Shown piece by piece: positions 6,040-46,855 of a stretch of 64,000 bases of DNA. Below the pieces are notes generated by a model. The model made no database searches. It was not told the DNA's origin and was given only the letters and a program-made list of their open reading frames with translations. The position numbers were made by a program, and so were the translations under genes. Source of the DNA: Fusobacterium mortiferum ATCC 9817. Lineage in GTDB: Bacteria > Fusobacteriota > Fusobacteriia > Fusobacteriales > Fusobacteriaceae. The stretch covers positions 705,847 through 769,846 of the forward strand of contig NZ_GL987988.1 of assembly GCF_000158195.2 (NCBI RefSeq). The letters run 5' to 3'. How positions within the stretch are numbered: position 1 is the stretch's first letter; every line of letters begins with the position of its first letter.

Positions 6040-7569
6040 TTATTTATCAGATACTTTAAATTTTAATTCATTGAAACGAATATACGATGTTGGTTTCATT
6101 CCTTCTACATTTTTAGTAGAAGCTACAGTATTGTTAGTATAATACATAGGAATAACAGGTACATCAGTGTAGATTATATCTGCTACCTCTTTATATAACT
6201 CTTTTCTCTTTTCAACATCTATCTCTCTTTTTGCTTCATCTAAAACTTTATCCATTTGAGGATTGATATATTGAGAACGGTTTCCAGCAGAACCTAATTG
6301 TGAACTATGGAAGTTAGGATAATATCCATAATCTCCATCATAAGTAGATGGTCCCCATCCTAAGCTAAACATATCTAAATCTCCTCTTCCAGTAGCTGTT
6401 AAAAATGCTCCCCACTCTAGAGATTCTACCGTTACATCAAGTCCAATCTCTTTAAGTTGAGCTTGGATTATTTCAGACATTTGCATTCTTATAGGACTGT
6501 TACTTACTCCAATAGTTAATTTAGAACCAGTAAGTCCTTTCTCTTCTATTATTTTTTTAGCTTCTTCAGGATTATACTCCAAAGTTTTAGCTTCTGGAGT
6601 GTATCCAAAAACTCCTGGTGCTATGAAGCTATTAGCTTTTTGAACAGAACCTAATAATAATATACTATCTATGATAGCATCTCTATCTATTCCCATAGCA
6701 ATTGCTCTTCTTACATCTTTATCTTTTAAGATACCCTTATCAGTATTTAATCCTACATAGTTTACACTTATTCCACTTTGCTCCATATATACTAACTCTG
6801 GATTATCCATAACAAGTCTTCTAGATTCAGCATTTAAGTCTGCTGTCATATCTATCTCTCCTGTTTCTAATCCTATTACACTACTATTTTCCTCTGGAAT
6901 AGCTCTAATAACAACATATTTAATACTTGGCTTCTCTCCAAAATAGTTGTCATTAGCTTCAAGAGTTATTCTATCTCCAACTTTCCAATCTTTATATTTA
7001 TATGGTCCTGTTCCTACAGGATTATGGAATCCCTCTTCCCCTTTCTCTTCAAAATATTTTTTACTTATAATTGAAGCAGTCTTATGGCTAAGGTGTGCAA
7101 GCAGTGGAGCGAAAGGCTCACTAGTATGTATTTTTACAGTATTATCATCTACTACTTCAATATTATCTATTAAAGAGTAAAGATGAGCTACTTTAGGTAG
7201 TGTTTTAGCTCTTTCCAATGTAAATTTTACATCTTCAGCACTGAATTTATTTCCATTGTGGAAAGTTATTCCTTCATTAAGATGGAATAAAATTGTATTA
7301 TCATCTAGTTGTTCCCAACTTTTTGCAAGACCTGGAACAATCTTTCCTGTCATCTCATCTATCTCAACTAATCTATCATAGATTACAGTGATAACTCTTT
7401 GTGAATATTGCTCAGTTGTATCTTGAGGATCTAATGTTTTACCTTCAGATATTTGAGAAAATACAAGAGTATCCTTTGTAGCATTTGCTGTATTTTCTTT
7501 ATTTTCTCCACAGGCAGCAAGTAATCCTAGCATCATAAAAGAGAATAGTAATTTTTTTCTTATTTTCAT
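6040..7569 (-). CDS. Family 5 ABC solute-binding lipoprotein (oligopeptide type)
   Basis: This 509-residue lipoprotein has a signal with lipobox LLAAC (Cys20), so it is anchored in a membrane facing the periplasm. The body is SBP_bac_5: an early DTLVFSQISEGKTLDPQD, the family segment EDVKFTLERAK, the GTGPYKYKDW motif and a C-terminal WGPSTYDGDY region. These proteins deliver peptides (sometimes nickel or glutathione) to Opp/Dpp permeases. No permease or ATPase gene is adjacent, so it is an orphan binding protein. The RBS is GGGAGGG. The M42 peptidase follows. Confidence 0.9.
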   Translation of the reverse strand: MKIRKKLLFSFMMLGLLAACGENKENTANATKDTLVFSQISEGKTLDPQDTTEQYSQRVITVIYDRLVEIDEMTGKIVPGLAKSWEQLDDNTILFHLNEGITFHNGNKFSAEDVKFTLERAKTLPKVAHLYSLIDNIEVVDDNTVKIHTSEPFAPLLAHLSHKTASIISKKYFEEKGEEGFHNPVGTGPYKYKDWKVGDRITLEANDNYFGEKPSIKYVVIRAIPEENSSVIGLETGEIDMTADLNAESRRLVMDNPELVYMEQSGISVNYVGLNTDKGILKDKDVRRAIAMGIDRDAIIDSILLLGSVQKANSFIAPGVFGYTPEAKTLEYNPEEAKKIIEEKGLTGSKLTIGVSNSPIRMQMSEIIQAQLKEIGLDVTVESLEWGAFLTATGRGDLDMFSLGWGPSTYDGDYGYYPNFHSSQLGSAGNRSQYINPQMDKVLDEAKREIDVEKRKELYKEVADIIYTDVPVIPMYYTNNTVASTKNVEGMKPTSYIRFNELKFKVSDK

Positions 7570-7698
7570 GTAATCCCTCCCAGTTTATTTTTTAAATATG
7601 TAACTATAATATCATATTTTTAATATAATGTATAGTTGTTTTTAAATTATATAAAAATGAAAATAAATTTCAAAAATAAAAAAATAAGAGATTTTAAA

Positions 7699-8577
7699 TT
7701 AATTAAAGAAAATCTTAGTAAGATATTTTTTTAAATCTTCTCTAAGTTTATCCAATTCCTTTTGATAATTTTCATTAGAAAGTTTAGGATATCTATCATT
7801 TACAAATCTACCTAGATTTTTCATACCCCACCAATTAGCTAAGTCATCATCAAAAACTTTGTAAGCTTTCATATAATTATCCCATTTTTCATCTTCTATA
7901 CCTATTCCATCTCCGATAAAACCTCTTCCTCCACCAAGGTATCCACAGTTCATTATAGTAAATATTCCTTTTCCATTTAAAATTCCACGAGGTCCATTAG
8001 GGGTATCTATATAAGCAAATTTTTTTCCAAAAACTCTTTCCTGATATCCTTTTACTATAGAGGTAGCACTATCATGCCAGTTAGGATAAGCAAATATAAT
8101 ATAATCAGCTTTTGTAATAAAGTTTTGTTCAATGATTACATCTTCAGGAGTAGCTCCTATCCCATCTTTTTGAGAATAAAACTCATCAGGGTGTAAAACA
8201 GGGTTAAAATTTATTTTATATAAATCTCTAATCTCTACCTCTATACCATTTTCTTCCAAATATTTCATAGAGGTATATACCATATCAAAAAGTAGAGAAT
8301 TATCTCTATTATCTCCTACTATAAAGAGAGCTTTTTTCTTATTAGAATTTGTAAATCCATGAGGAATATATTTTGAAACATAAGAAGCTGGAACTACTGA
8401 AGCAGATGTTATTCCATCTAATTTTTCTCTCTCTTTTTCTGAAAGAGTAGAACTATAATTATTAGAATTGATTATTTTAATTTCTACTTTCTCATCTCTA
8501 TTTATATAGTTATAGAGTCCAATTACTCCTAAACCTAAAAATCCCATCAAAATTAAACTTTTTAGCTGACTATTCAT
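7699..8577 (-). CDS. Membrane-anchored NAD(P)H oxidoreductase, flavodoxin-like fold
   Basis: This 292-residue protein has one N-terminal hydrophobic segment (about residues 6-22), probably a membrane anchor. From about residue 80 a Flavodoxin_2 fold follows: KKALFIVGDNRDNS with the SLLFDM helix, FAYPNWHDSATSIVKGYQ and a flavin-site NCGYLGGGRG loop. Relatives are quinone or azo reductases using FMN or FAD. The N-terminal anchor of about 80 residues is unusual for the family, whose members are normally soluble. AAGGAAG precedes the ATG. It is 12 bases downstream of the metallopeptidase gene. Confidence 0.75.
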   Translation of the reverse strand: MNSQLKSLILMGFLGLGVIGLYNYINRDEKVEIKIINSNNYSSTLSEKEREKLDGITSASVVPASYVSKYIPHGFTNSNKKKALFIVGDNRDNSLLFDMVYTSMKYLEENGIEVEIRDLYKINFNPVLHPDEFYSQKDGIGATPEDVIIEQNFITKADYIIFAYPNWHDSATSIVKGYQERVFGKKFAYIDTPNGPRGILNGKGIFTIMNCGYLGGGRGFIGDGIGIEDEKWDNYMKAYKVFDDDLANWWGMKNLGRFVNDRYPKLSNENYQKELDKLREDLKKYLTKIFFN

Positions 8578-8589
8578 ATTTTCACTTCC

Positions 8590-9243
8590 TTAAGTATTAG
8601 ATCTCAATTGTTTTCTTTTTTCTTTCCAACTTGGCATATATTTTTCTACAAAATCCCAAAATTCCTTTTGATGATGTGGATATGGAATATGAGCTAATTC
8701 ATGAAGAATAACATAATCGATTATATCCTTTGACTTTTTATAGAGTTGATGATTAAAGGTTATACTTCTAGAGAGAGTGTTACAAGAACCCCATCTAGTT
8801 TTCATATCCCTAAATTTTATCATTTTAGGAGAATAGCCTATACTTTCTCCTATCTCCATAGTTCTATTGATAACATAGGGATAAAAGTTGTCATATATCC
8901 ATTGATTGATTAATTTTTTTCTCTTTTCAAAGCTATTGTCTTTAAGGTAGATTATAAAGTTATTATCTTTAATCTCACACCTTTCTTGAAGAGATATTTC
9001 TAACTTGATAATATATGGAAATCCCAAATAATAGAATTTACCTCCTTCTTCAAACTTAGTTTCTAACTTTTTCCTCTCTTCTACTAGAGCTATTTTTTCT
9101 CTTATCCATTTTTCTTTTTCTTTTAAGAGAGATTCTATATATGAGTTTGGAACTCTTATTGGAGCAGATACAAGAACTTCCCCGTCACTATTTATTCTAA
9201 TTGTAATATTTTTCATTTTTTTTCTAGTTATTTTTATCTTCAT
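8590..9243 (-). CDS. YgjP-like M48/SprT-related metallopeptidase
   Basis: This is a cytosolic zinc protease of the YgjP (DUF45) family. HELAH is followed by PHHQKEFW with the third ligand, and RWGSC is the family signature. I chose the ATG at 9243 (217 aa), which gives a normal family N terminus (ITRKKMKNITIRI). An in-frame start at 9300 adds 19 hydrophobic residues. No Shine-Dalgarno precedes either. A TGATATAAT extended -10 ends seven bases before the 9243 ATG, so the message may be leaderless. The gene heads a two-gene unit with the reductase. Confidence 0.75.
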   Translation of the reverse strand: MKIKITRKKMKNITIRINSDGEVLVSAPIRVPNSYIESLLKEKEKWIREKIALVEERKKLETKFEEGGKFYYLGFPYIIKLEISLQERCEIKDNNFIIYLKDNSFEKRKKLINQWIYDNFYPYVINRTMEIGESIGYSPKMIKFRDMKTRWGSCNTLSRSITFNHQLYKKSKDIIDYVILHELAHIPYPHHQKEFWDFVEKYMPSWKEKRKQLRSNT

Positions 9244-9250
9244 AGTTTTT

Positions 9251-9259
9251 ATTATATCA
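9251..9259 (-). promoter_or_regulatory. Extended -10 immediately upstream of the metallopeptidase ATG
   Basis: Read on the - strand this is TGATATAAT, with seven bases (AAAAACT) before the ATG. The predicted transcription start falls on or next to the start codon. Confidence 0.5.
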
Positions 9260-9310
9260 TATTTTTTAGCTAAATAAAGATAAAAGAGAACTCTAACCAT
9301 AAAAAATATA

Positions 9311-9339
9311 TTGTTTTTTTTTGTATTATCTCTTATAAT
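9311..9339 (+). promoter_or_regulatory. lepA promoter
   Basis: TTGTTT (9311-9316), a 17-base spacer and TATAAT (9334-9339) lie 37 bases before lepA. Confidence 0.6.
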
Positions 9340-9375
9340 ATTATGTGAATAAGTAGGATTTATTAGGAGGTAAGA

Positions 9376-11178
9376 ATGTTACAAAAACATAAAAGAAACT
9401 TCTCAATAATAGCACATATAGACCATGGAAAATCTACAATAGCAGATAGATTATTAGAGTATACTGGTGCTGTTTCTAAAAGAGAGATGAAAGAGCAACT
9501 TCTTGATTCAATGGATTTGGAAAGAGAGAAGGGAATAACTATAAAAGCTCAAGCTGTAACTTTATATTATAAGGCAAAAGATGGAATAGAGTATGAATTA
9601 AACTTAATTGATACTCCAGGACACGTAGACTTTATCTATGAGGTATCAAGATCATTATCAGCTTGTGAGGGAGCTTTACTGGTAGTAGATGCTGCTCAAG
9701 GAGTAGAGGCTCAAACTTTAGCTAACGTATATTTAGCAATAGAGAACAATCTTGAGATAGTACCTGTAATCAATAAAATAGATTTACCAGCAGCTGACCC
9801 AGAAAAAGTAAAAATTGAGATAGAGGATGTAATAGGATTACCAGCTGATGATGCTGTAATGTGTTCAGGTAAGACAGGAATAGGTATTGAAGATTTATTA
9901 GAAGCAATAGTAAAAAGAATACCAGCTCCAAATTATGAAGAGGATGCTCCTTTAAAAGCTTTAATATTCGACTCTAAATTTGATGATTATAGAGGTGTAA
10001 TCACATATGTAAAAGTTTTAGATGGAAGTATTAAAAAGGGAGATAAAATTAGAATCTGGTCAACAGAGAAAGATTTTGATGTTTTAGAGGTTGGAGTATT
10101 CTCTCCTACTATGAGACCTCAAGATGAGCTTTCTTCTGGTTCAGTTGGATATATAATAACAGGAGTTAAAACAATACATGATACAAGAGTAGGAGATACT
10201 ATTACTCATACAAATAATCCTTGTATATTCCCATTAGAGGGATTTAAACCAGCTCAATCAATGGTATTTGCTGGAGTATATCCACTATTTACAGATGACT
10301 ATGAAGATTTAAGAGAGGCATTAGAAAAATTACAATTAAATGATGCTTCATTAACCTTTGTACCAGAGACATCAATAGCTCTAGGATTTGGATTTAGATG
10401 TGGATTCTTAGGATTACTACATATGGAGATTATAGTTGAAAGACTTAGAAGAGAGTACAATATAGACTTGATTTCTACTACACCATCAGTTGAGTATAGA
10501 GTAAATATGGATAAGGGAGAGGTACTTGTAATAGATAATCCTTGTGAATTCCCAGATGGTGGAAGAGGAAGATTATCAGTAGAGGAACCATTTATAAGAG
10601 GTAAGGTAATAGTTCCTAAGGACTATGTAGGAAATGTAATGGAGCTTTGCCAAGAGAAGAGAGGAATATTTATAGGTATGGACTTTATTGATGAAAATAG
10701 ATCAATGCTTACTTATGAATTACCACTTGCAGAGATAGTAATAGATTTCTATGATAAATTAAAATCAAGAACTAAAGGATATGCTTCATTTGAATATGAA
10801 TTAGTAGGATATAAGGAATCAGATTTAGTTAAGGTAGATATACTTGTATCTGGAAAACCTGTGGATGCTTTCTCATTTATAGCTCATAAAGATGGAGCTT
10901 ACAGTAGAGGAAGAGCTATCTGTGAAAAGTTAAAAGAGGTTATCCCAAGACAACAATTTGAAATACCTATACAAGCAGCACTAGGAGCAAAGGTTATAGC
11001 AAGAGAGACTATCAAGGCATATAGAAAGAACGTTATAGCAAAATGTTATGGTGGAGATATCACAAGAAAGAAAAAACTTCTTGAAAAACAAAAAGAGGGT
11101 AAAAAGAGAATGAAGAGCATAGGAAATGTTGAGATCCCTCAAGAAGCTTTCGTATCAGTATTAAAATTAAATGATTAA
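9376..11178 (+). CDS. lepA: Elongation factor 4 (LepA)
   Basis: This is a 600-residue translational GTPase of standard length. G1 is AHIDHGKST near residue 13, G3 DTPGH, and G4 NKIDLP. The EF-G-like domains follow, with the LepA-specific C-terminal domain ending in [16 protein letters not shown]. LepA acts on ribosomes during stalling or initiation-related steps and is nearly universal. The RBS AGGAGG is six bases from the ATG. The glycosyltransferase gene follows by 18 bases and is probably cotranscribed. Confidence 0.97.
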
Positions 11179-32502: not shown

Positions 32503-33936
32503 CTAAAATTTTAAATGGATGTAGAATCTATAATCATTTACCATTTCGATTTCATCTATTATAAGTTTTAAAAAATTATTTATTTTTTCTGGAGCTTTTT
32601 CCTTTTCTAATTTAAAAAAATATTTTTTTAATATCTCTGAATTTTTATTAGTATTTTTTTTATTAGTAATTAATGTAGTTAAATTTTTGATTTTTTCCTC
32701 CGGGAACGCCTTTTTTTCTTTTAACTCTTTCATTAACTTTTCGAAAACTTCCTCAGATATAAGAGAATTTAATAACTGCCTGGCTAGGAGTTCTTCTTTT
32801 CCAGAGAGAGAAGCCAACTCTTTTTTATAAAGAACTAATTGAGATTGATAATCATCAAATTTGGTATCAATGTTCTCTACTTCTAAAGAAAAAATAATTT
32901 TTTTTAAAGAAGCCATAACTTCTTCAAATAACTCTTCTTCATGAATACCAATAGCACCACACCCAAGACTTTTATATTTATCAGAAGTTCTACAATAATA
33001 TAGGTTCTCTGTTTTTCTAGAAATTTCATTGGTTGATTTTTTTAAATAATTATATTTATTTACAACCCGATACATCTTTCTTCCACAAGTACATTTTATT
33101 AAATCTTTAAAGATATATACATCTGTATTTCTTTCAACCTTAATATTTTTTAATTTACCTTGCACCAGGGAAAAAGTACTTTCATCTATAATAGGCTCAT
33201 GGATCCCATTCAACACTTTATAATCTTTATGAAGAATTTTTTTCTTATTAATTATTTCAACAGAATGGAATTTTAATTTTCCAATGTAGACGGGATTTTC
33301 TAATAATCTTCTAACCTTTTTTACTTCATATCCAAAAAAATTAGCAATGGATTGTCTGGTTTTTCCATCAAGAAAAAGTTTAAAAATAGTTTTAACCTTT
33401 TCTGCATCCTCTGGAACTATTACCAGCTCTTTATTAACTAATTTATATCCCAAGGGAGCTGGGCCTCCAGTCCATCTCCCTTGCTCTGCTAATTCAGTCA
33501 TTCTGTCCTTACTTCTTTTAGCTGTTTTCCTTCCCTCTCTAGCATCTAATAAATTTAAAAGATTAGTCAGAAAGGTATCATCAGCATCTTGTAAGTCTAA
33601 CCAACCATGTGTAACAGTATAAACTTTAACATTATGAACTCTTAATAATCCATAAAATATATGATGCTCCAATTCATCTCTTGTAAGCCTAGAACTTTCA
33701 TACAATACTAAAGTATCAACTAAATTATTTTGGATATCTTCTTTTAATTTACTATATTGTTCTCTGTCTTTATTGTACCCAGATGCTACATCATAATAAA
33801 CTTTTATATTTTGAAGATTTATTTTTTTAGCAGCTTTTTTACACATATCTATAAGACTTTGTATATTTTGCTTTTCTGTACTTTCCCTGCAATAAATAGC
33901 TGAAATTTTAGCAGGAGAAGAAAAACTATTCGACAT
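32503..33936 (-). CDS. Large serine recombinase (prophage integrase)
   Basis: This 477-residue enzyme has the N-terminal resolvase domain with IYCRESTEKQ (catalytic Ser19 and Arg17) and YESSRLTRDE. A recombinase domain follows (about 155-265), and a zinc ribbon starts with CTCGRKMYR and has later cysteines near CRTSDK and LGCGA. A coiled-coil motif (about 350-440) comes last. This order is that of large serine integrases, which join attP and attB without host factors. As the leftmost phage gene it places attL near 31.9-32.5 kb. It overlaps the 33-residue ORF upstream by 11 bases. Confidence 0.92.
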   Translation of the reverse strand: MSNSFSSPAKISAIYCRESTEKQNIQSLIDMCKKAAKKINLQNIKVYYDVASGYNKDREQYSKLKEDIQNNLVDTLVLYESSRLTRDELEHHIFYGLLRVHNVKVYTVTHGWLDLQDADDTFLTNLLNLLDAREGRKTAKRSKDRMTELAEQGRWTGGPAPLGYKLVNKELVIVPEDAEKVKTIFKLFLDGKTRQSIANFFGYEVKKVRRLLENPVYIGKLKFHSVEIINKKKILHKDYKVLNGIHEPIIDESTFSLVQGKLKNIKVERNTDVYIFKDLIKCTCGRKMYRVVNKYNYLKKSTNEISRKTENLYYCRTSDKYKSLGCGAIGIHEEELFEEVMASLKKIIFSLEVENIDTKFDDYQSQLVLYKKELASLSGKEELLARQLLNSLISEEVFEKLMKELKEKKAFPEEKIKNLTTLITNKKNTNKNSEILKKYFFKLEKEKAPEKINNFLKLIIDEIEMVNDYRFYIHLKF

Positions 33937-41422: not shown

Positions 41423-41650
41423 ATGTTAAAATCAAAGTTAAGACATTTAATGGCAGATAAAAAAATAAATTCCTTATCAGCTTTAATTAGAGATTCCAAA
41501 ATTAGTAGAGAAACTTTAAATAAGTTGTACCATGAAGAAAAAATGGAAACTCTAAAGTTAGAAATGATAGTAAAAATTTGTGAATATTTTAATTGCAATA
41601 TCCAAGACTTAATAGAGTATATCCCAGATGAAGAAACTTTACAGAACTAA
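41423..41650 (+). CDS. XRE-type helix-turn-helix regulator, 75 aa
   Basis: This small Cro/CI-like protein has an HTH over about residues 15-65 (SLSALIRDSKISRETLNKLY and a following MIVKICEYFNCNIQDLIEY helix pair). The pattern matches short one-domain repressors of the YozG type. AGGAGG precedes the ATG. It is divergent from the leftward 40926-41168 gene, the usual place for a Cro or early repressor. The first palindromic repeat starts at its stop codon. Confidence 0.8.
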   Translation: MLKSKLRHLMADKKINSLSALIRDSKISRETLNKLYHEEKMETLKLEMIVKICEYFNCNIQDLIEYIPDEETLQN

Positions 41651-41722
41651 TCTACTCAAGAGAGCATCCTAGACCGACCCGCCAAAGTCTTTTTAATTCT
41701 AGGACACTCTATTCAGTAGATT
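41649..41722. repeat. Palindromic boundary repeat, copy 1
   Basis: This is a 74-bp imperfect palindrome. AATCTACT pairs with AGTAGATT, AGAG with CTCT and TCCTAGA with TCTAGGA, separated by symmetric unpaired steps and a loop of about 24 bases. Copy 2 at 43836-43908 is identical except for a few bases, all in the loop. Confidence 0.85.
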
Positions 41723-41762
41723 ATGCTATTGAATAAATATTTTTTATAAGGGGAGATTTTTT

Positions 41763-42935
41763 ATGAAAAAAATCGCGTTGTTTATTTGGTTTATTTGTTT
41801 ATTATTAGGATGTGGAGATGAAGAGAGAAAATCTCAAGTACCTGATACTAAAATAGTTATTCCATATGACTATTATCAGGAAAGAGCTAATTCAGTAAAA
41901 TTACAAGGTATAGTTTCTCTAAATCTATTTGAAAATAATCTTCCTACAGAAGAGCAATTAAAAAATATTGCAGAAGACTTAATTATGAAGAATCCAGACT
42001 ATGAAAATTATTTTTTTACATTCAAATTTCCATTTACTCAAAAAAGACCTGAGAAAGATGCTAATAATTTTCAGTTGTATTACAATATTAATAAATTAGG
42101 AAAAAATGATTTTGAAATTCAAGCTCTATATCCTCAAATGAAATATTATAATTTAACTTTGAGTAAAAATATTATTGGTAAATTAGGTATTAATCAAATT
42201 TCAAATATAACTCCAATAAAAGTTGGAACTTCATTAAATGAGATATTTTCTAAATTAGGAAATCCTTCAGAAAAAAAGGATAATACTTATATTTATTATA
42301 TTGTCAATAATAGAAATCAAACTTTTGGAACTCTTTATTTAGAAGAAAATGATAGTAAGATTTCTAATGTCGCATTTTATTCAAACAATTTAAACTTTGA
42401 TGAAAACCAGTTATCTCAAATAGAAAAATATATAGTAGGAGATATCTCATTATCAGACTTGAAAATAAAGGAGATAGATGACATATATCCATTTAGTATT
42501 TCAATTAAACAATTTCCAGAAAGATTAAATTATTCTCGTTTAAGTATGGGAGATATAGATAATGTGGATTATTTAGAAAAAGTTAATAAAACAACTGTTG
42601 ATTTTATAATCCCAGCAAAACAAAAAAATTATGTTAAGTATACTTTTGATATTAAAAGTCAAAATTTATCAAAAGTTACAATAGTATCAGAAGATAATAC
42701 AGATGAAAATTATGAAAAATTCTTATCTGATATGAGTAGAGCTTTTCTTGTTTTGGATCCAGAATGTAATTTCCTCAGAATAAATAGTACAATATTAAGT
42801 AAATTAAATTTTCTTTATGATAATTTTGTTAATTCTAAAAACTATAAGGCTTCTATTCTTATGGGAAAATATAAAATTGATTTACAAAAAAATAAAGCTA
42901 AAGTAATTCTAAATATTTCCGAAAATAAAGATTAA
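41763..42935 (+). CDS. Lipoprotein with BamE-like segment, cassette cargo
   Basis: This 390-residue lipoprotein has a signal with lipobox LLLGC (Cys17). The body is unrecognised apart from a central part (about residues 155-200) that resembles the SmpA/OmlA/BamE fold: KVGTSLNEIFSKLGNPSEKK followed by two strands and FGTLYLEEN. It is the only exported protein in the prophage seen here and lies in the 2.2-kb cassette. Such genes often change the surface of the lysogen (superinfection exclusion or host interaction), which is inference. The RBS is AAGGGGAG. Confidence 0.75.
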   Translation: MKKIALFIWFICLLLGCGDEERKSQVPDTKIVIPYDYYQERANSVKLQGIVSLNLFENNLPTEEQLKNIAEDLIMKNPDYENYFFTFKFPFTQKRPEKDANNFQLYYNINKLGKNDFEIQALYPQMKYYNLTLSKNIIGKLGINQISNITPIKVGTSLNEIFSKLGNPSEKKDNTYIYYIVNNRNQTFGTLYLEENDSKISNVAFYSNNLNFDENQLSQIEKYIVGDISLSDLKIKEIDDIYPFSISIKQFPERLNYSRLSMGDIDNVDYLEKVNKTTVDFIIPAKQKNYVKYTFDIKSQNLSKVTIVSEDNTDENYEKFLSDMSRAFLVLDPECNFLRINSTILSKLNFLYDNFVNSKNYKASILMGKYKIDLQKNKAKVILNISENKD

Positions 42936-42940
42936 GCATT

Positions 42941-42972
42941 CATTTCTTAGCTATAATTATGGCTAAGAAATG
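42941..42972. other. Hairpin after the lipoprotein gene
   Basis: CATTTCTTAGC (42941-42951) and GCTAAGAAATG (42962-42972) are perfect 11-bp arms without a T-run. It may protect the 3' end or bind a protein. The real terminator follows at 43046. Confidence 0.5.
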
Positions 42973-43045
42973 CAAGTATAAAAATTCCAAAATAAGTTAA
43001 TAAGGATACAATTGAGTAAAAATATACAAAAATAATAATAAATTG

Positions 43046-43080
43046 AATAAACTTTGCTAATTGAGCAAGGTTTATTTTTT
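43046..43080 (+). terminator. Terminator of the lipoprotein gene
   Basis: AATAAACTTTGCT and AGCAAGGTTTATT form a 13-bp stem (one G-T pair) with a five-base loop and T-run. Confidence 0.8.
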
Positions 43081-43168
43081 GGATAATAAATAATCTAGGA
43101 TAATAACAACTATTATTTGGTAAATAATTTGCTCAAATGTAGTAAAAATAAAATAATTCAAATAATCT

Positions 43169-43531
43169 TTATTCATAATAAACTCCTTGTGAATTTTGGT
43201 TAATAAAGTTCATAACTCTGCTTATATAAAAACTTGTTAATTTAGCCTGAGTAGAATAATAATTATTTTTTAATTTTATTCCCTTTTGTTTCTTTATACG
43301 TTTTTTAGAAATACAGGAATATTTATATTTTATTATTCTTTTTTTATAAATTATTAGACACTTAGCTACTGCTATTTGAAAATCCCAAAATGTTTCTATA
43401 TTTTTCCTATTATAAAATTTTCTCTTGTCCTCTTTTACTTCATTTAAAAAAGAAATGCTATTTTTTAAAACTATTTTTTTAGTTCTATCTAAAATTAATA
43501 GCTCTCTATTTTTATTTCTATTTTTTTTCAT
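43169..43531 (-). CDS. Very basic hypothetical protein, 120 aa
   Basis: About a third of the residues are Lys or Arg, with clusters such as KNRNKNRELLILDRTKK. It has no membrane helix or recognised family. GTGGAGG precedes the ATG. It probably binds nucleic acid. It is read leftward, convergent with the lipoprotein gene, and downstream of the 81-residue gene. Confidence 0.55.
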   Translation of the reverse strand: MKKNRNKNRELLILDRTKKIVLKNSISFLNEVKEDKRKFYNRKNIETFWDFQIAVAKCLIIYKKRIIKYKYSCISKKRIKKQKGIKLKNNYYSTQAKLTSFYISRVMNFINQNSQGVYYE

Positions 43532-43562
43532 ATATCCTCCACTTAAAGAAATATAATACTAT

Positions 43563-43808
43563 TTATTTTTGATTAAAAAAATTTTTTAAAATATCTCTAA
43601 TAGCAAAAAATCTACTGGATACCATGATATTAGAAATTTTTTTAGGAATGAGAATAACTTCATCATCTTTAATAGTGCAGATTTTAACTATTCTATTATC
43701 ATTTAAAAATGTAATAGTTGTAGTTTCTACTCTATGTACATTAGCTGGAGTTAATCCCTTAAAATTATTTAACTTTCTTACTAAGGATTTTCTAATCCAT
43801 TTTTTCAT
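43563..43808 (-). CDS. Basic hypothetical protein, 81 aa
   Basis: This 81-residue basic protein is unrecognised. It has a strand-rich centre (ETTTITFLNDNRIVKICTI) between helices. AAGGTGG lies before the ATG. Its start is 28 bases from palindromic repeat copy 2, mirroring the way copy 1 precedes the lipoprotein gene. Confidence 0.55.
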   Translation of the reverse strand: MKKWIRKSLVRKLNNFKGLTPANVHRVETTTITFLNDNRIVKICTIKDDEVILIPKKISNIMVSSRFFAIRDILKNFFNQK

Positions 43809-43835
43809 AAAACACCACCTTTTTAATATTTGAGT

Positions 43836-43908
43836 AATCTACTCAAGAGAGCATCCTAGACCGACCGCCAAGTCTTATTTAACTCTAGGACACTCTATTC
43901 AGTAGATT
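43836..43908. repeat. Palindromic boundary repeat, copy 2
   Basis: This is a 73-bp copy of the 41649-41722 palindrome. The three stem segments are identical to copy 1. The loop differs by two deletions and a few changes. Together the copies bound a 2.2-kb segment. Confidence 0.85.
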
Positions 43909-43916
43909 AATCACAA

Positions 43917-43946
43917 TTTGACTTTTTGTCAAAAACTTGCTATAAT
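43917..43946 (+). promoter_or_regulatory. Strong promoter with overlapping operator for the 35-aa peptide
   Basis: TTGACT (43918-43923), a 17-base spacer and TATAAT (43941-43946) are near consensus. TTTGAC-TTTTT-GTCAAA (43917-43933) is a perfect dyad covering the -35, a likely repressor site. Confidence 0.75.
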
Positions 43947-43952
43947 TTAATT

Positions 43953-44081
43953 ACCTAGAACCCGTATGGGTACTTAAATGTTTGTTTGATTAAGCTTAGA
44001 ATATTAGCCCTAATAATTTATTGGGGCTTTTATTCTGCCCTTAAGCAAGGTAGACAAACAAATATTTAAGGAGGTACAGAA
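43953..44081 (+). promoter_or_regulatory. Structured leader of the 35-aa peptide mRNA
   Basis: CTTAAATGTTTGTTTG (43973-43988) pairs with CAAACAAATATTTAAG (44055-44070) over 16 positions with one G-U. It encloses AGAATA/TATTCT and an AGCCC..GGGCT hairpin followed by TTTTATT, which could terminate transcription. The outer stem ends inside the AAGGAGG ribosome site, so translation may be hindered. Confidence 0.6.
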
Positions 44082-44189
44082 ATGACTGTAACAATTGAGC
44101 AGCTGACTATCATCTTTGATGGTGGAGCAATTCTTCTAGGTGGATTGCTTCTCATCATTGTGATATGGTTGATTAAAAAGTACAGATAA
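44082..44189 (+). CDS. 35-residue membrane peptide (type I toxin-like)
   Basis: This peptide (MTVTIEQLTIIFDGGAILLG, then one membrane helix and a KKYR end) has a perfect AAGGAGG upstream. Length, an N-terminal E-x-L segment, a single helix and a basic tail resemble holin-like/TxpA-type toxins of type I toxin-antitoxin pairs. A rightward promoter, structured leader and terminator make it an independent unit, and an opposing promoter lies just downstream. It could instead be a small phage coat or membrane protein of the neighbouring rolling-circle module. Confidence 0.6.
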   Translation: MTVTIEQLTIIFDGGAILLGGLLLIIVIWLIKKYR

Positions 44190-44199
44190 TTCTGACCTC

Positions 44200-44221
44200 A
44201 TACCCTACGGGGTATTTTTTT
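44200..44221 (+). terminator. Terminator of the 35-aa peptide gene
   Basis: ATACCC.TACG.GGGTAT hairpin followed by T7. Confidence 0.75.
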
Positions 44222-45775: not shown

Positions 45776-46855
45776 ATGGTAGGGCTAGACAGGGCGGCAG
45801 TCTGGGTGCAACTGGAAGTGGAAGCTGACCTTGTCATATTGGGAATCCAAAAAAGATTTGCTGATGTCAAACCTAAAAAACTTGCAGGGAATACTCAGAC
45901 TTTTAAATTAAATGAAAATAATCTCAATGAGATTAGAGTTAAAGAAAAGCTAGGGAAAACTCTGGTAAAAATAGATTTTTCATATTCAAAATATGGGAAA
46001 GAAAACAATTTATACCCTTTAGAAAATGAGATCTCCAAAATTATAGTTGAAGAGAAATTAATAGACATAATTGAAGATATCTCTCTCATCAAAATCACTC
46101 GTTCTGATTTGAATTATGATTTCATAGAAGTTTGCACCCAGGAAGCAGTAAAGAGTTTTTATGAATATCATAATATAATTTCAACATTTTATAAATCATT
46201 AAGAAGAGCCATTTCTCATCAACAAGGAGTTAGATTTGAGAACTATGACTTGAATCTTGATTTTTTTTATAGTACAGGATTTATATTTCAAATGAATCCA
46301 GGCTGGAAGATGAGATTATACAGTAAAACTCATGAACATAATAAAAAAAATTCCCAGAACAAAATATTTGGTGGAAACATAAGGCTTGAACATAGGTTAA
46401 CTAGTACAGCCTTAAATTATTTTTGTAAAAGTTCAAGAGTAAGTGAAATATCTATAGATATTTTAAAAGAAAAAGTATTGAAAAAAATTGGAGTCCAGCT
46501 CTTTAAGTGTCTTGAAGCTGAGATTCAAAGAGATATTGATATTTTAGAAGTTAAGTTGAAAGACTATACTTCTAGAACTTTACCTCTTCTAGTTAGAGAT
46601 CTACAAGAACATATTCTTGATGAGGAAACTGTTAACTATGTAGTAACAAAGTTAGCAACAACAAGTGAACGGCAAATAAAGAGATATAGGCAAAAAATAA
46701 AAGTAGCTTTAGAAGAGTTCCAAAATAAAGGAAGTCCAAAAAGAAGTAATTTTGGGAACATAGAAAGATTAGAATTTTTTATAAATAAAATATTATTATA
46801 CCAGGTAAAAGTTAAATGCAAATACAAAGAGCGTTTAACTTTTAATGCTACTTAA
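45776..46855 (+). CDS. Phage/plasmid replication protein, filamentous-phage II/X-like
   Basis: This 359-residue protein has landmarks of the II/X (gpII/CRI-like) initiators of inoviruses. There is an R-x-D in ITRSDLNYDFIE near residue 105, then GWKMRLYSKTHEHNKK around 182-197 and IRLEHRLTS, the R-x-E-x-R-L motif. These proteins nick one strand to start rolling-circle replication. GAGG lies about eight bases before the ATG. The first 17 codons are 61% GC, very unlike the rest. No Zot-like assembly ATPase or coat gene set accompanies it, so this is not a complete inovirus. A helical C terminus (240-359) is unassigned. Confidence 0.6.
   Translation: MVGLDRAAVWVQLEVEADLVILGIQKRFADVKPKKLAGNTQTFKLNENNLNEIRVKEKLGKTLVKIDFSYSKYGKENNLYPLENEISKIIVEEKLIDIIEDISLIKITRSDLNYDFIEVCTQEAVKSFYEYHNIISTFYKSLRRAISHQQGVRFENYDLNLDFFYSTGFIFQMNPGWKMRLYSKTHEHNKKNSQNKIFGGNIRLEHRLTSTALNYFCKSSRVSEISIDILKEKVLKKIGVQLFKCLEAEIQRDIDILEVKLKDYTSRTLPLLVRDLQEHILDEETVNYVVTKLATTSERQIKRYRQKIKVALEEFQNKGSPKRSNFGNIERLEFFINKILLYQVKVKCKYKERLTFNAT

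What the first reader, a model, noticed from the sequence alone, without database searches (positions are those of the whole stretch)
41649..43908. 2.2-kb cassette bounded by two near-identical palindromes
Copies of a 73-74 bp palindrome with perfectly kept stems and varied loops lie before a rightward lipoprotein gene and before two leftward basic-protein genes, so the cassette is symmetric: palindrome, gene, convergent genes, palindrome. Strict stem identity without compensatory change points to DNA recognition by a protein rather than RNA folding. It could be a site-specific recombination cassette or a non-autonomous mobile unit for surface cargo.
Basis: seen in the sequence. Interest (0 to 1): 0.75.

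Follow-up and report, generated by a model that had tools for sequence, protein, structure and literature searches.

The report
Hairpin leader linking shuffled prophage genes
The two palindromes belong to an undescribed family of about 60-97-base hairpins in Fusobacteriota prophages that sit beside the starts of swappable accessory genes; each probably works as a transcribed control element, and the same short block turns up between otherwise unrelated genes, so genes appear to be exchanged around it.

Summary
Imperfect palindromes P1 (41648-41723) and P2 (43835-43909) have identical arms, differ in their loops, lie in the same orientation, and are the only copies in this genome. They are in a prophage, between an HTH_26 gene and the late operon.

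I found 38 copies in all: in 7 of 98 Fusobacteriota genomes, in about a dozen IMG/VR contigs, and in phage Funu1. One relative genome has a 6-copy array. Across relatives the arms DO change in compensatory fashion (11-13 of 19 pairs), around fixed mismatches.

P normally starts at the HTH stop codon and ends 10-50 nt before an accessory gene's start. In solitary units a sigma-70-like promoter lies upstream of P and none inside it, so P is transcribed as a leader.

The same P block adjoins different HTH types and different cargo. Identical islands of about 110-125 bp end abruptly in unrelated sequence.

Best reading: a transcribed leader hairpin that doubles as a recombination linker, working like T4 PeSL cassettes. 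I found no recombinase, target duplication or excision event for P. The site-specific cassette reading is not excluded but is unsupported. All functional claims are inferred; there is no expression data.

The parts
41423..41650 (+). HTH_26 (Cro/C1-type) regulator, 75 aa; the constant left neighbour of the first P in homologous prophages
   Evidence: Pfam HTH_26 E=3e-20; homologues directly upstream of P in 18 loci
41648..41723 (+). P1: hairpin element, 26-nt arms; starts at the HTH stop codon, start codon of the lipoprotein gene 39 nt downstream
41763..42935 (+). cargo gene: 390-aa predicted lipoprotein; middle domain weakly BamE-like
   Evidence: homologues follow P in L029 and L062 at 37-43% identity, and by eye in L032; Foldseek top hit BamE 5wam E=4e-3 on a low-confidence model
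43169..43531 (-). leftward ORF, 120 aa, basic; function unknown
   Evidence: ORF list; weak PHROG 19155 hit E=2e-4
43563..43808 (-). leftward ORF, 81 aa, basic, starting 26 nt from P2 with an AAAGGTGG ribosome site
43835..43909 (+). P2: hairpin element, same orientation and arms as P1; last copy before the core rightward operon
43919..43947 (+). sigma-70-like promoter (TTGACT-17-TATAAT) overlapping an inverted repeat TTTGAC/GTCAAA, start of the core rightward transcript just right of P2
   Evidence: read by eye; not tested

Best explanation
P is a transcribed hairpin control element. It lies in the leader, or between two cistrons, of prophage accessory ('moron') genes and abuts their ribosome sites, sometimes on both sides for divergent genes. 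Its 23-27 bp imperfect stem with fixed mismatches and a terminal stem-loop probably acts on the mRNA (processing by an RNase III-like enzyme, stabilisation, or protein-bound translation control). The P-plus-ribosome-site block is short, portable and shared between phages, so it also serves as a homologous linker at which new cargo genes are joined to the region next to the HTH gene, giving arrays of 0-5 cargo units. It works like the T4 PeSL regulatory cassettes. Shown by sequence: hairpin selection, position, a promoter upstream of P (hence P in the leader) at solitary loci, and identity islands with unrelated flanks. Inferred: what the hairpin does in the mRNA, and that homologous recombination rather than a recombinase moves it.
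For: (1) Arms co-vary: 97% of cells paired versus 75% shuffled, 95 double-sided changes versus 37, 11 of 19 pairs; a larger set gives the same picture but counts both strands of many elements. Loop length runs from 6 to 45 nt, so the half-sites have no fixed spacing as double-stranded DNA. (2) Position: in most of 36 loci a gene with a ribosome site starts within 80 nt of P's right end, mostly 10-50 nt (L032 by eye). (3) Most of eight solitary copies have a sigma-70-like promoter upstream of P (L055's is borderline, L053 has none), and none stands out inside P, so the gene's mRNA must carry P. (4) The inner hairpin is more stable on the + strand in 27 of 31 distinct sequences. (5) P is not inherited with the HTH gene beside it (Mantel r=0.06, p=0.23). 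Identical islands of 15+81+15 and about 22+85+14 nt between L060 and Funu1, and 10+80+34 nt through the ribosome site inside the G004 array, end in unrelated sequence. (6) An array locus (seen in L026 and L046) and a chromosomal locus (seen in L049 and L052) keep a decayed tail of the HTH gene left of P.
Against: Pair changes at variable positions are almost all Watson-Crick, with wobble equally rare on both strands (18 versus 25 of 695), which is less RNA-like than expected. The conserved CA/CA mismatch pairs as G-U on the minus strand, so strand choice is not settled. In this window the inner hairpin is the exception (more stable on minus). Leftward genes starting at P have no visible promoter. 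No expression data exist, and no partner protein is identified.
Confidence: 0.55

Rival explanations
1. Integron-like site: P is an attC-like folded single-strand recombination site and the segments between P copies are mobile cassettes inserted next to the HTH gene.
For: Directly repeated sites with fixed mismatches and variable terminal loops; arrays of up to 5 units with different cargo; near-identical P copies within one array or between phages despite unrelated flanks; several joints lie next to P.
Against: No integron integrase seen; the phage tyrosine recombinase has its own tail-fibre sites AAATTCTGTAATTACAGAATTT and was not found in G004, which has the largest array. Identity islands run 10-34 nt past P on each side instead of breaking at one fixed base inside it. 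P is kept at solitary genes with no partner site. No attC R-box (GTTRRRY) was recognised by eye.
Confidence: 0.15
2. Double-stranded operator: P is bound by the neighbouring HTH_26 protein (or another repressor) through its two inverted half-sites.
For: An HTH gene lies directly beside P in 18 loci; arms are strictly kept among close relatives.
Against: Half-site spacing varies by about 40 bp; arms covary by pairing; P type does not follow HTH type; no further half-sites occur in the window; HTH relatives outside Fusobacteriota have no detectable P.
Confidence: 0.12
3. P is only the transcription terminator of the HTH gene, and cargo genes were parked behind it by chance.
For: Inner hairpins followed by T-rich tracts in several copies; in L050 and L033 an extended P stem followed by TTTTTTT and no cargo gene.
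Against: P is kept in front of solitary genes without an intact HTH gene, where a terminator in the leader would block expression; T-tracts are not consistent (8 of 31, no strand bias); the ribosome site is part of the conserved block in some pairs.
Confidence: 0.1
4. Non-autonomous transposon or MITE-like unit whose ends are the two palindromes.
For: Two near-identical repeats flank 2.2 kb of accessory genes.
Against: No target duplication seen at the P edges; loci with a single P are common; P sits at one fixed position (HTH stop) in different phages.
Confidence: 0.04

Closest known systems
PeSL 'mobile regulatory cassettes' of T4-type phages (Arbiol et al. 2010; cited in PMC4177764, original not readable here)
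   Same: A short intergenic regulatory block with a stem-loop, repeated in a phage genome, flanking accessory genes and thought to mediate shuffling (own knowledge plus the title).
   Different: PeSL carry an early promoter (own knowledge); P has no detectable promoter, a longer covarying stem with fixed mismatches, is used for divergent genes too, and sits beside a regulator gene of a prophage.
ESAS/SAS elements of cluster K mycobacteriophages (PMC3203893, PMC11373665)
   Same: Imperfect inverted repeats with a variable spacer directly upstream of the starts of selected phage genes; consensus differs between phage subgroups.
   Different: ESAS are 17-bp repeats containing a SigA-like promoter, and the authors found little support for an mRNA hairpin; P arms covary and P lies downstream of the promoter where one is visible.
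Integron attC sites
   Same: Imperfect palindromes in direct arrays with conserved mismatches, variable terminal loop and compensatory changes.
   Different: No integron integrase found, no R box seen, joints not at a fixed base, P is kept at solitary genes.
RNase III processing sites between T7 early genes (own knowledge)
   Same: Intercistronic hairpins of about two helical turns with internal mismatches just upstream of the next gene.
   Different: Cleavage of P not tested; P is shared between unrelated genes and across phages.

Membership tests
T4 PeSL mobile regulatory cassette | repeated stem-loop block between accessory genes, shared by otherwise unrelated neighbours | tested here: met
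T4 PeSL mobile regulatory cassette | contains an early promoter | tested here: not met
   no promoter clearly above background inside P on the gene strand; a phage-specific promoter type would be missed
ESAS (cluster K) | inverted repeat upstream of start codons of selected genes | tested here: met
ESAS (cluster K) | 17-bp repeats including SigA-like promoter; associated 13-bp SAS motif | tested here: not met
   arms 23-27 nt, no promoter in P, no constant motif seen between P and start codon
Integron attC | imperfect palindrome with pairing conserved by compensatory change and fixed unpaired bases | tested here: met
Integron attC | R'/R'' boxes (GTTRRRY/RYYYAAC) | tested here: not met
   not seen in the arm alignment, by inspection only
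Integron attC | integron integrase in the same element | tested here: not met
   only a serine recombinase and a tyrosine recombinase next to tail-fibre shufflon sites were found
Integron attC | precise excision and insertion of cassettes | not testable with these tools
   no reads
Known Rfam RNA family | match above a curated threshold | tested here: not met
Operator of the HTH_26 protein | site type follows regulator type | tested here: not met
   Mantel r=0.056, p=0.23

The most novel reading that the evidence does not exclude
P is the recognition site of an unidentified structure-specific DNA recombination (or copy-out) system in Fusobacteriota prophages: an integron-like cassette platform next to a lysogeny regulator, carrying defence-type cargo such as TIR, WYL and envelope proteins.
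Probability: 0.12. Interest if true: 0.85.

Novelty: new variant of a known kind. Interest (0 to 1): 0.6.

Why it matters
It gives a sequence tag for finding the swappable accessory region of a whole group of Fusobacteriota prophages, whose cargo includes a likely TIR defence effector. It is also a clean case of a hairpin that is both selected as a structure and found as a joint between unrelated genes. Fusobacteriota are medically important and, as far as I know, their prophage regulation is little studied. Whether the element acts as RNA or DNA is directly testable.

Tried and rejected
Tyrosine recombinase as the P enzyme: homologues in this prophage and in several other P-bearing records, but it lies beside a tail-fibre shufflon with 22-bp palindromic sites unrelated to P. 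Rfam: no hit. Exact-pattern and BLAST searches of plasmids, phages and GTDB contigs with the window's own P: no match; most relatives came through degenerate patterns and covariance models. Strand bias in the stem: none. T-tract test for terminators: no strand bias. Homology of the L048/L051 gene to the lipoprotein, first noted by eye, was dropped after alignment. P type being set by host clade looked attractive, but one type occurs in two different genomes beside other types and most IMG hosts are unknown, so I do not claim it. Literature searches found no description of this element. The two-strand alignment A5 inflates counts, so one search is the cleaner covariation test.

Full report
WHAT IS THERE. 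The window's right half (from about 32 kb) is a prophage: serine recombinase 32503-33936, leftward ParA and replication genes, rightward methylase, terminase, portal and tail genes. Between the leftward and rightward operons lie an HTH_26 gene (41423-41650), P1, a lipoprotein gene, two leftward basic ORFs and P2. P1 and P2 have identical arms, different loops and the same orientation, and occur nowhere else in the genome.

RELATIVES. A gapped pattern gave two IMG/VR contigs in which the same arms follow the stop codon of an HTH gene but precede a different gene. A same-genus genome (G004) has six copies separating five units with different cargo. A covariance model, a second pattern and a broader model then found copies in 7 of 98 Fusobacteriota genomes (4 genera), further IMG/VR contigs, and the named phage Funu1: 38 copies in all, the window's two included. 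Nothing was found in plasmids or in GTDB contigs with the window's own type; near relatives may have been withheld from those collections.

THE HAIRPIN IS SELECTED. In 21 aligned copies 97% of cells are paired (75% in shuffles) and 11 of 19 pairs show double-sided changes. In the larger alignment it is 13 of 19 pairs, though that set counts both strands of many elements. Inner stems change as TCCTAGA/TCTAGGA, TACCAAGA/TCTTGGTA, GTTGATTA/TAATCAAC and GTTCAAGA/TCTTGAAC. At the same time a C-C mismatch, AA/TT pairs and a CA/CA internal mismatch are nearly fixed. Loop length varies from 6 to about 45 nt. A paired-operator reading in double-stranded DNA does not explain this; a folded strand does.

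RNA OR DNA. P abuts ribosome sites: in most of 36 loci a gene starts within 80 nt of its right end, mostly 10-50 nt, and in several a leftward gene starts 19-26 nt from its left end. At most of eight solitary loci (L055 borderline, L053 not) a sigma-70-like promoter lies 21-98 nt upstream of P, and none stands out inside P, so P is in the leader. The terminal stem-loop is more stable on the + strand in 27 of 31 distinct copies; these copies are related, so this is not 31 independent observations. Against RNA, wobble pairs in the stem are rare and unbiased, and in this window the terminal loop appears reversed relative to relatives.

P AS A JOINT. P type does not follow the HTH type beside it (Mantel r=0.056, p=0.23), with pairs such as L060 and Funu1 having identical P and 61% different HTH proteins. 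Identity islands are sharp: 15+81+15 nt and about 22+85+14 nt between L060 and Funu1, with 25-33% ungapped identity outside; 10+80+34 nt within the G004 array, ending at the ribosome site. Remains of the HTH 3' end lie left of P2 in L026 and L046 and left of P at a chromosomal locus (L049, L052), so units are joined at or near the HTH end and some have moved to the chromosome. That chromosomal copy sits between transporter and cysteine-metabolism genes, with no phage genes in the 9 kb read.

CARGO. TIR-like (PADLOC TIR, E=4e-19), WYL-domain membrane proteins, a SWIM-like protein, and the lipoprotein family with a weakly BamE-like middle domain. A role in phage exclusion is a guess. The lipoprotein family is found behind P copies of different types.

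MECHANISM. I commit to a transcribed leader hairpin doubling as a recombination linker (0.55). Homologous exchange between phages is inferred from the islands. What the hairpin does to the mRNA is inferred from position and stem length. The integron-like reading (0.15) lacks an enzyme: the tyrosine recombinase shared by many of these phages sits in a tail-fibre shufflon with other sites.

WHAT IS KNOWN. It resembles T4 PeSL cassettes in logic, and cluster K ESAS elements in position. ESAS contain a promoter and their authors found little hairpin support (PMC3203893, PMC11373665); PeSL details are from own knowledge because the paper is not held. It fails defining features of both, so I describe it as working like them, not as a member. 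No paper found describes it.

Noticed in passing
L064 (G000:C2:769000-788999) about 6400-10900, same prophage but beyond the window: Tail-fibre shufflon: many copies, in both orientations, of sites around AAATTCTGTAATTACAGAATTT with alternative fibre ends, next to a tyrosine recombinase gene 9891-10898.
   Followed up: partly
window 43975-44210: Small membrane peptide ORF (MTVTIEQLTIIFDGGAILLGGLLLIIVIWLIKKYR) behind a long-range inverted repeat and before a terminator-like hairpin; looks like a type I toxin-antitoxin locus.
   Followed up: no
window 41674-41697 and 43861-43883: The terminal loops of both P copies look like the reverse complement of those in relatives (AAAAAGACT..GGGTC on the minus strand), suggesting an inversion inside the palindrome.
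   Followed up: no
L026 5954-6664, L046, L050: TIR-like protein (PADLOC TIR E=4e-19 for the L026 copy) as cargo directly behind P in several prophages.
   Followed up: partly
window 45776-46855: Conserved phage protein with weak similarity to filamentous-phage G2P replication initiators (PHROG 36664, Pfam E=0.011), in an otherwise tailed phage.
   Followed up: no
L063 (Funu1) about 10140-10165: A lone left half of P (TTTTCTCAATAGCGTAGTTCATAAATTT) before another gene, with no right arm: a decayed copy.
   Followed up: no
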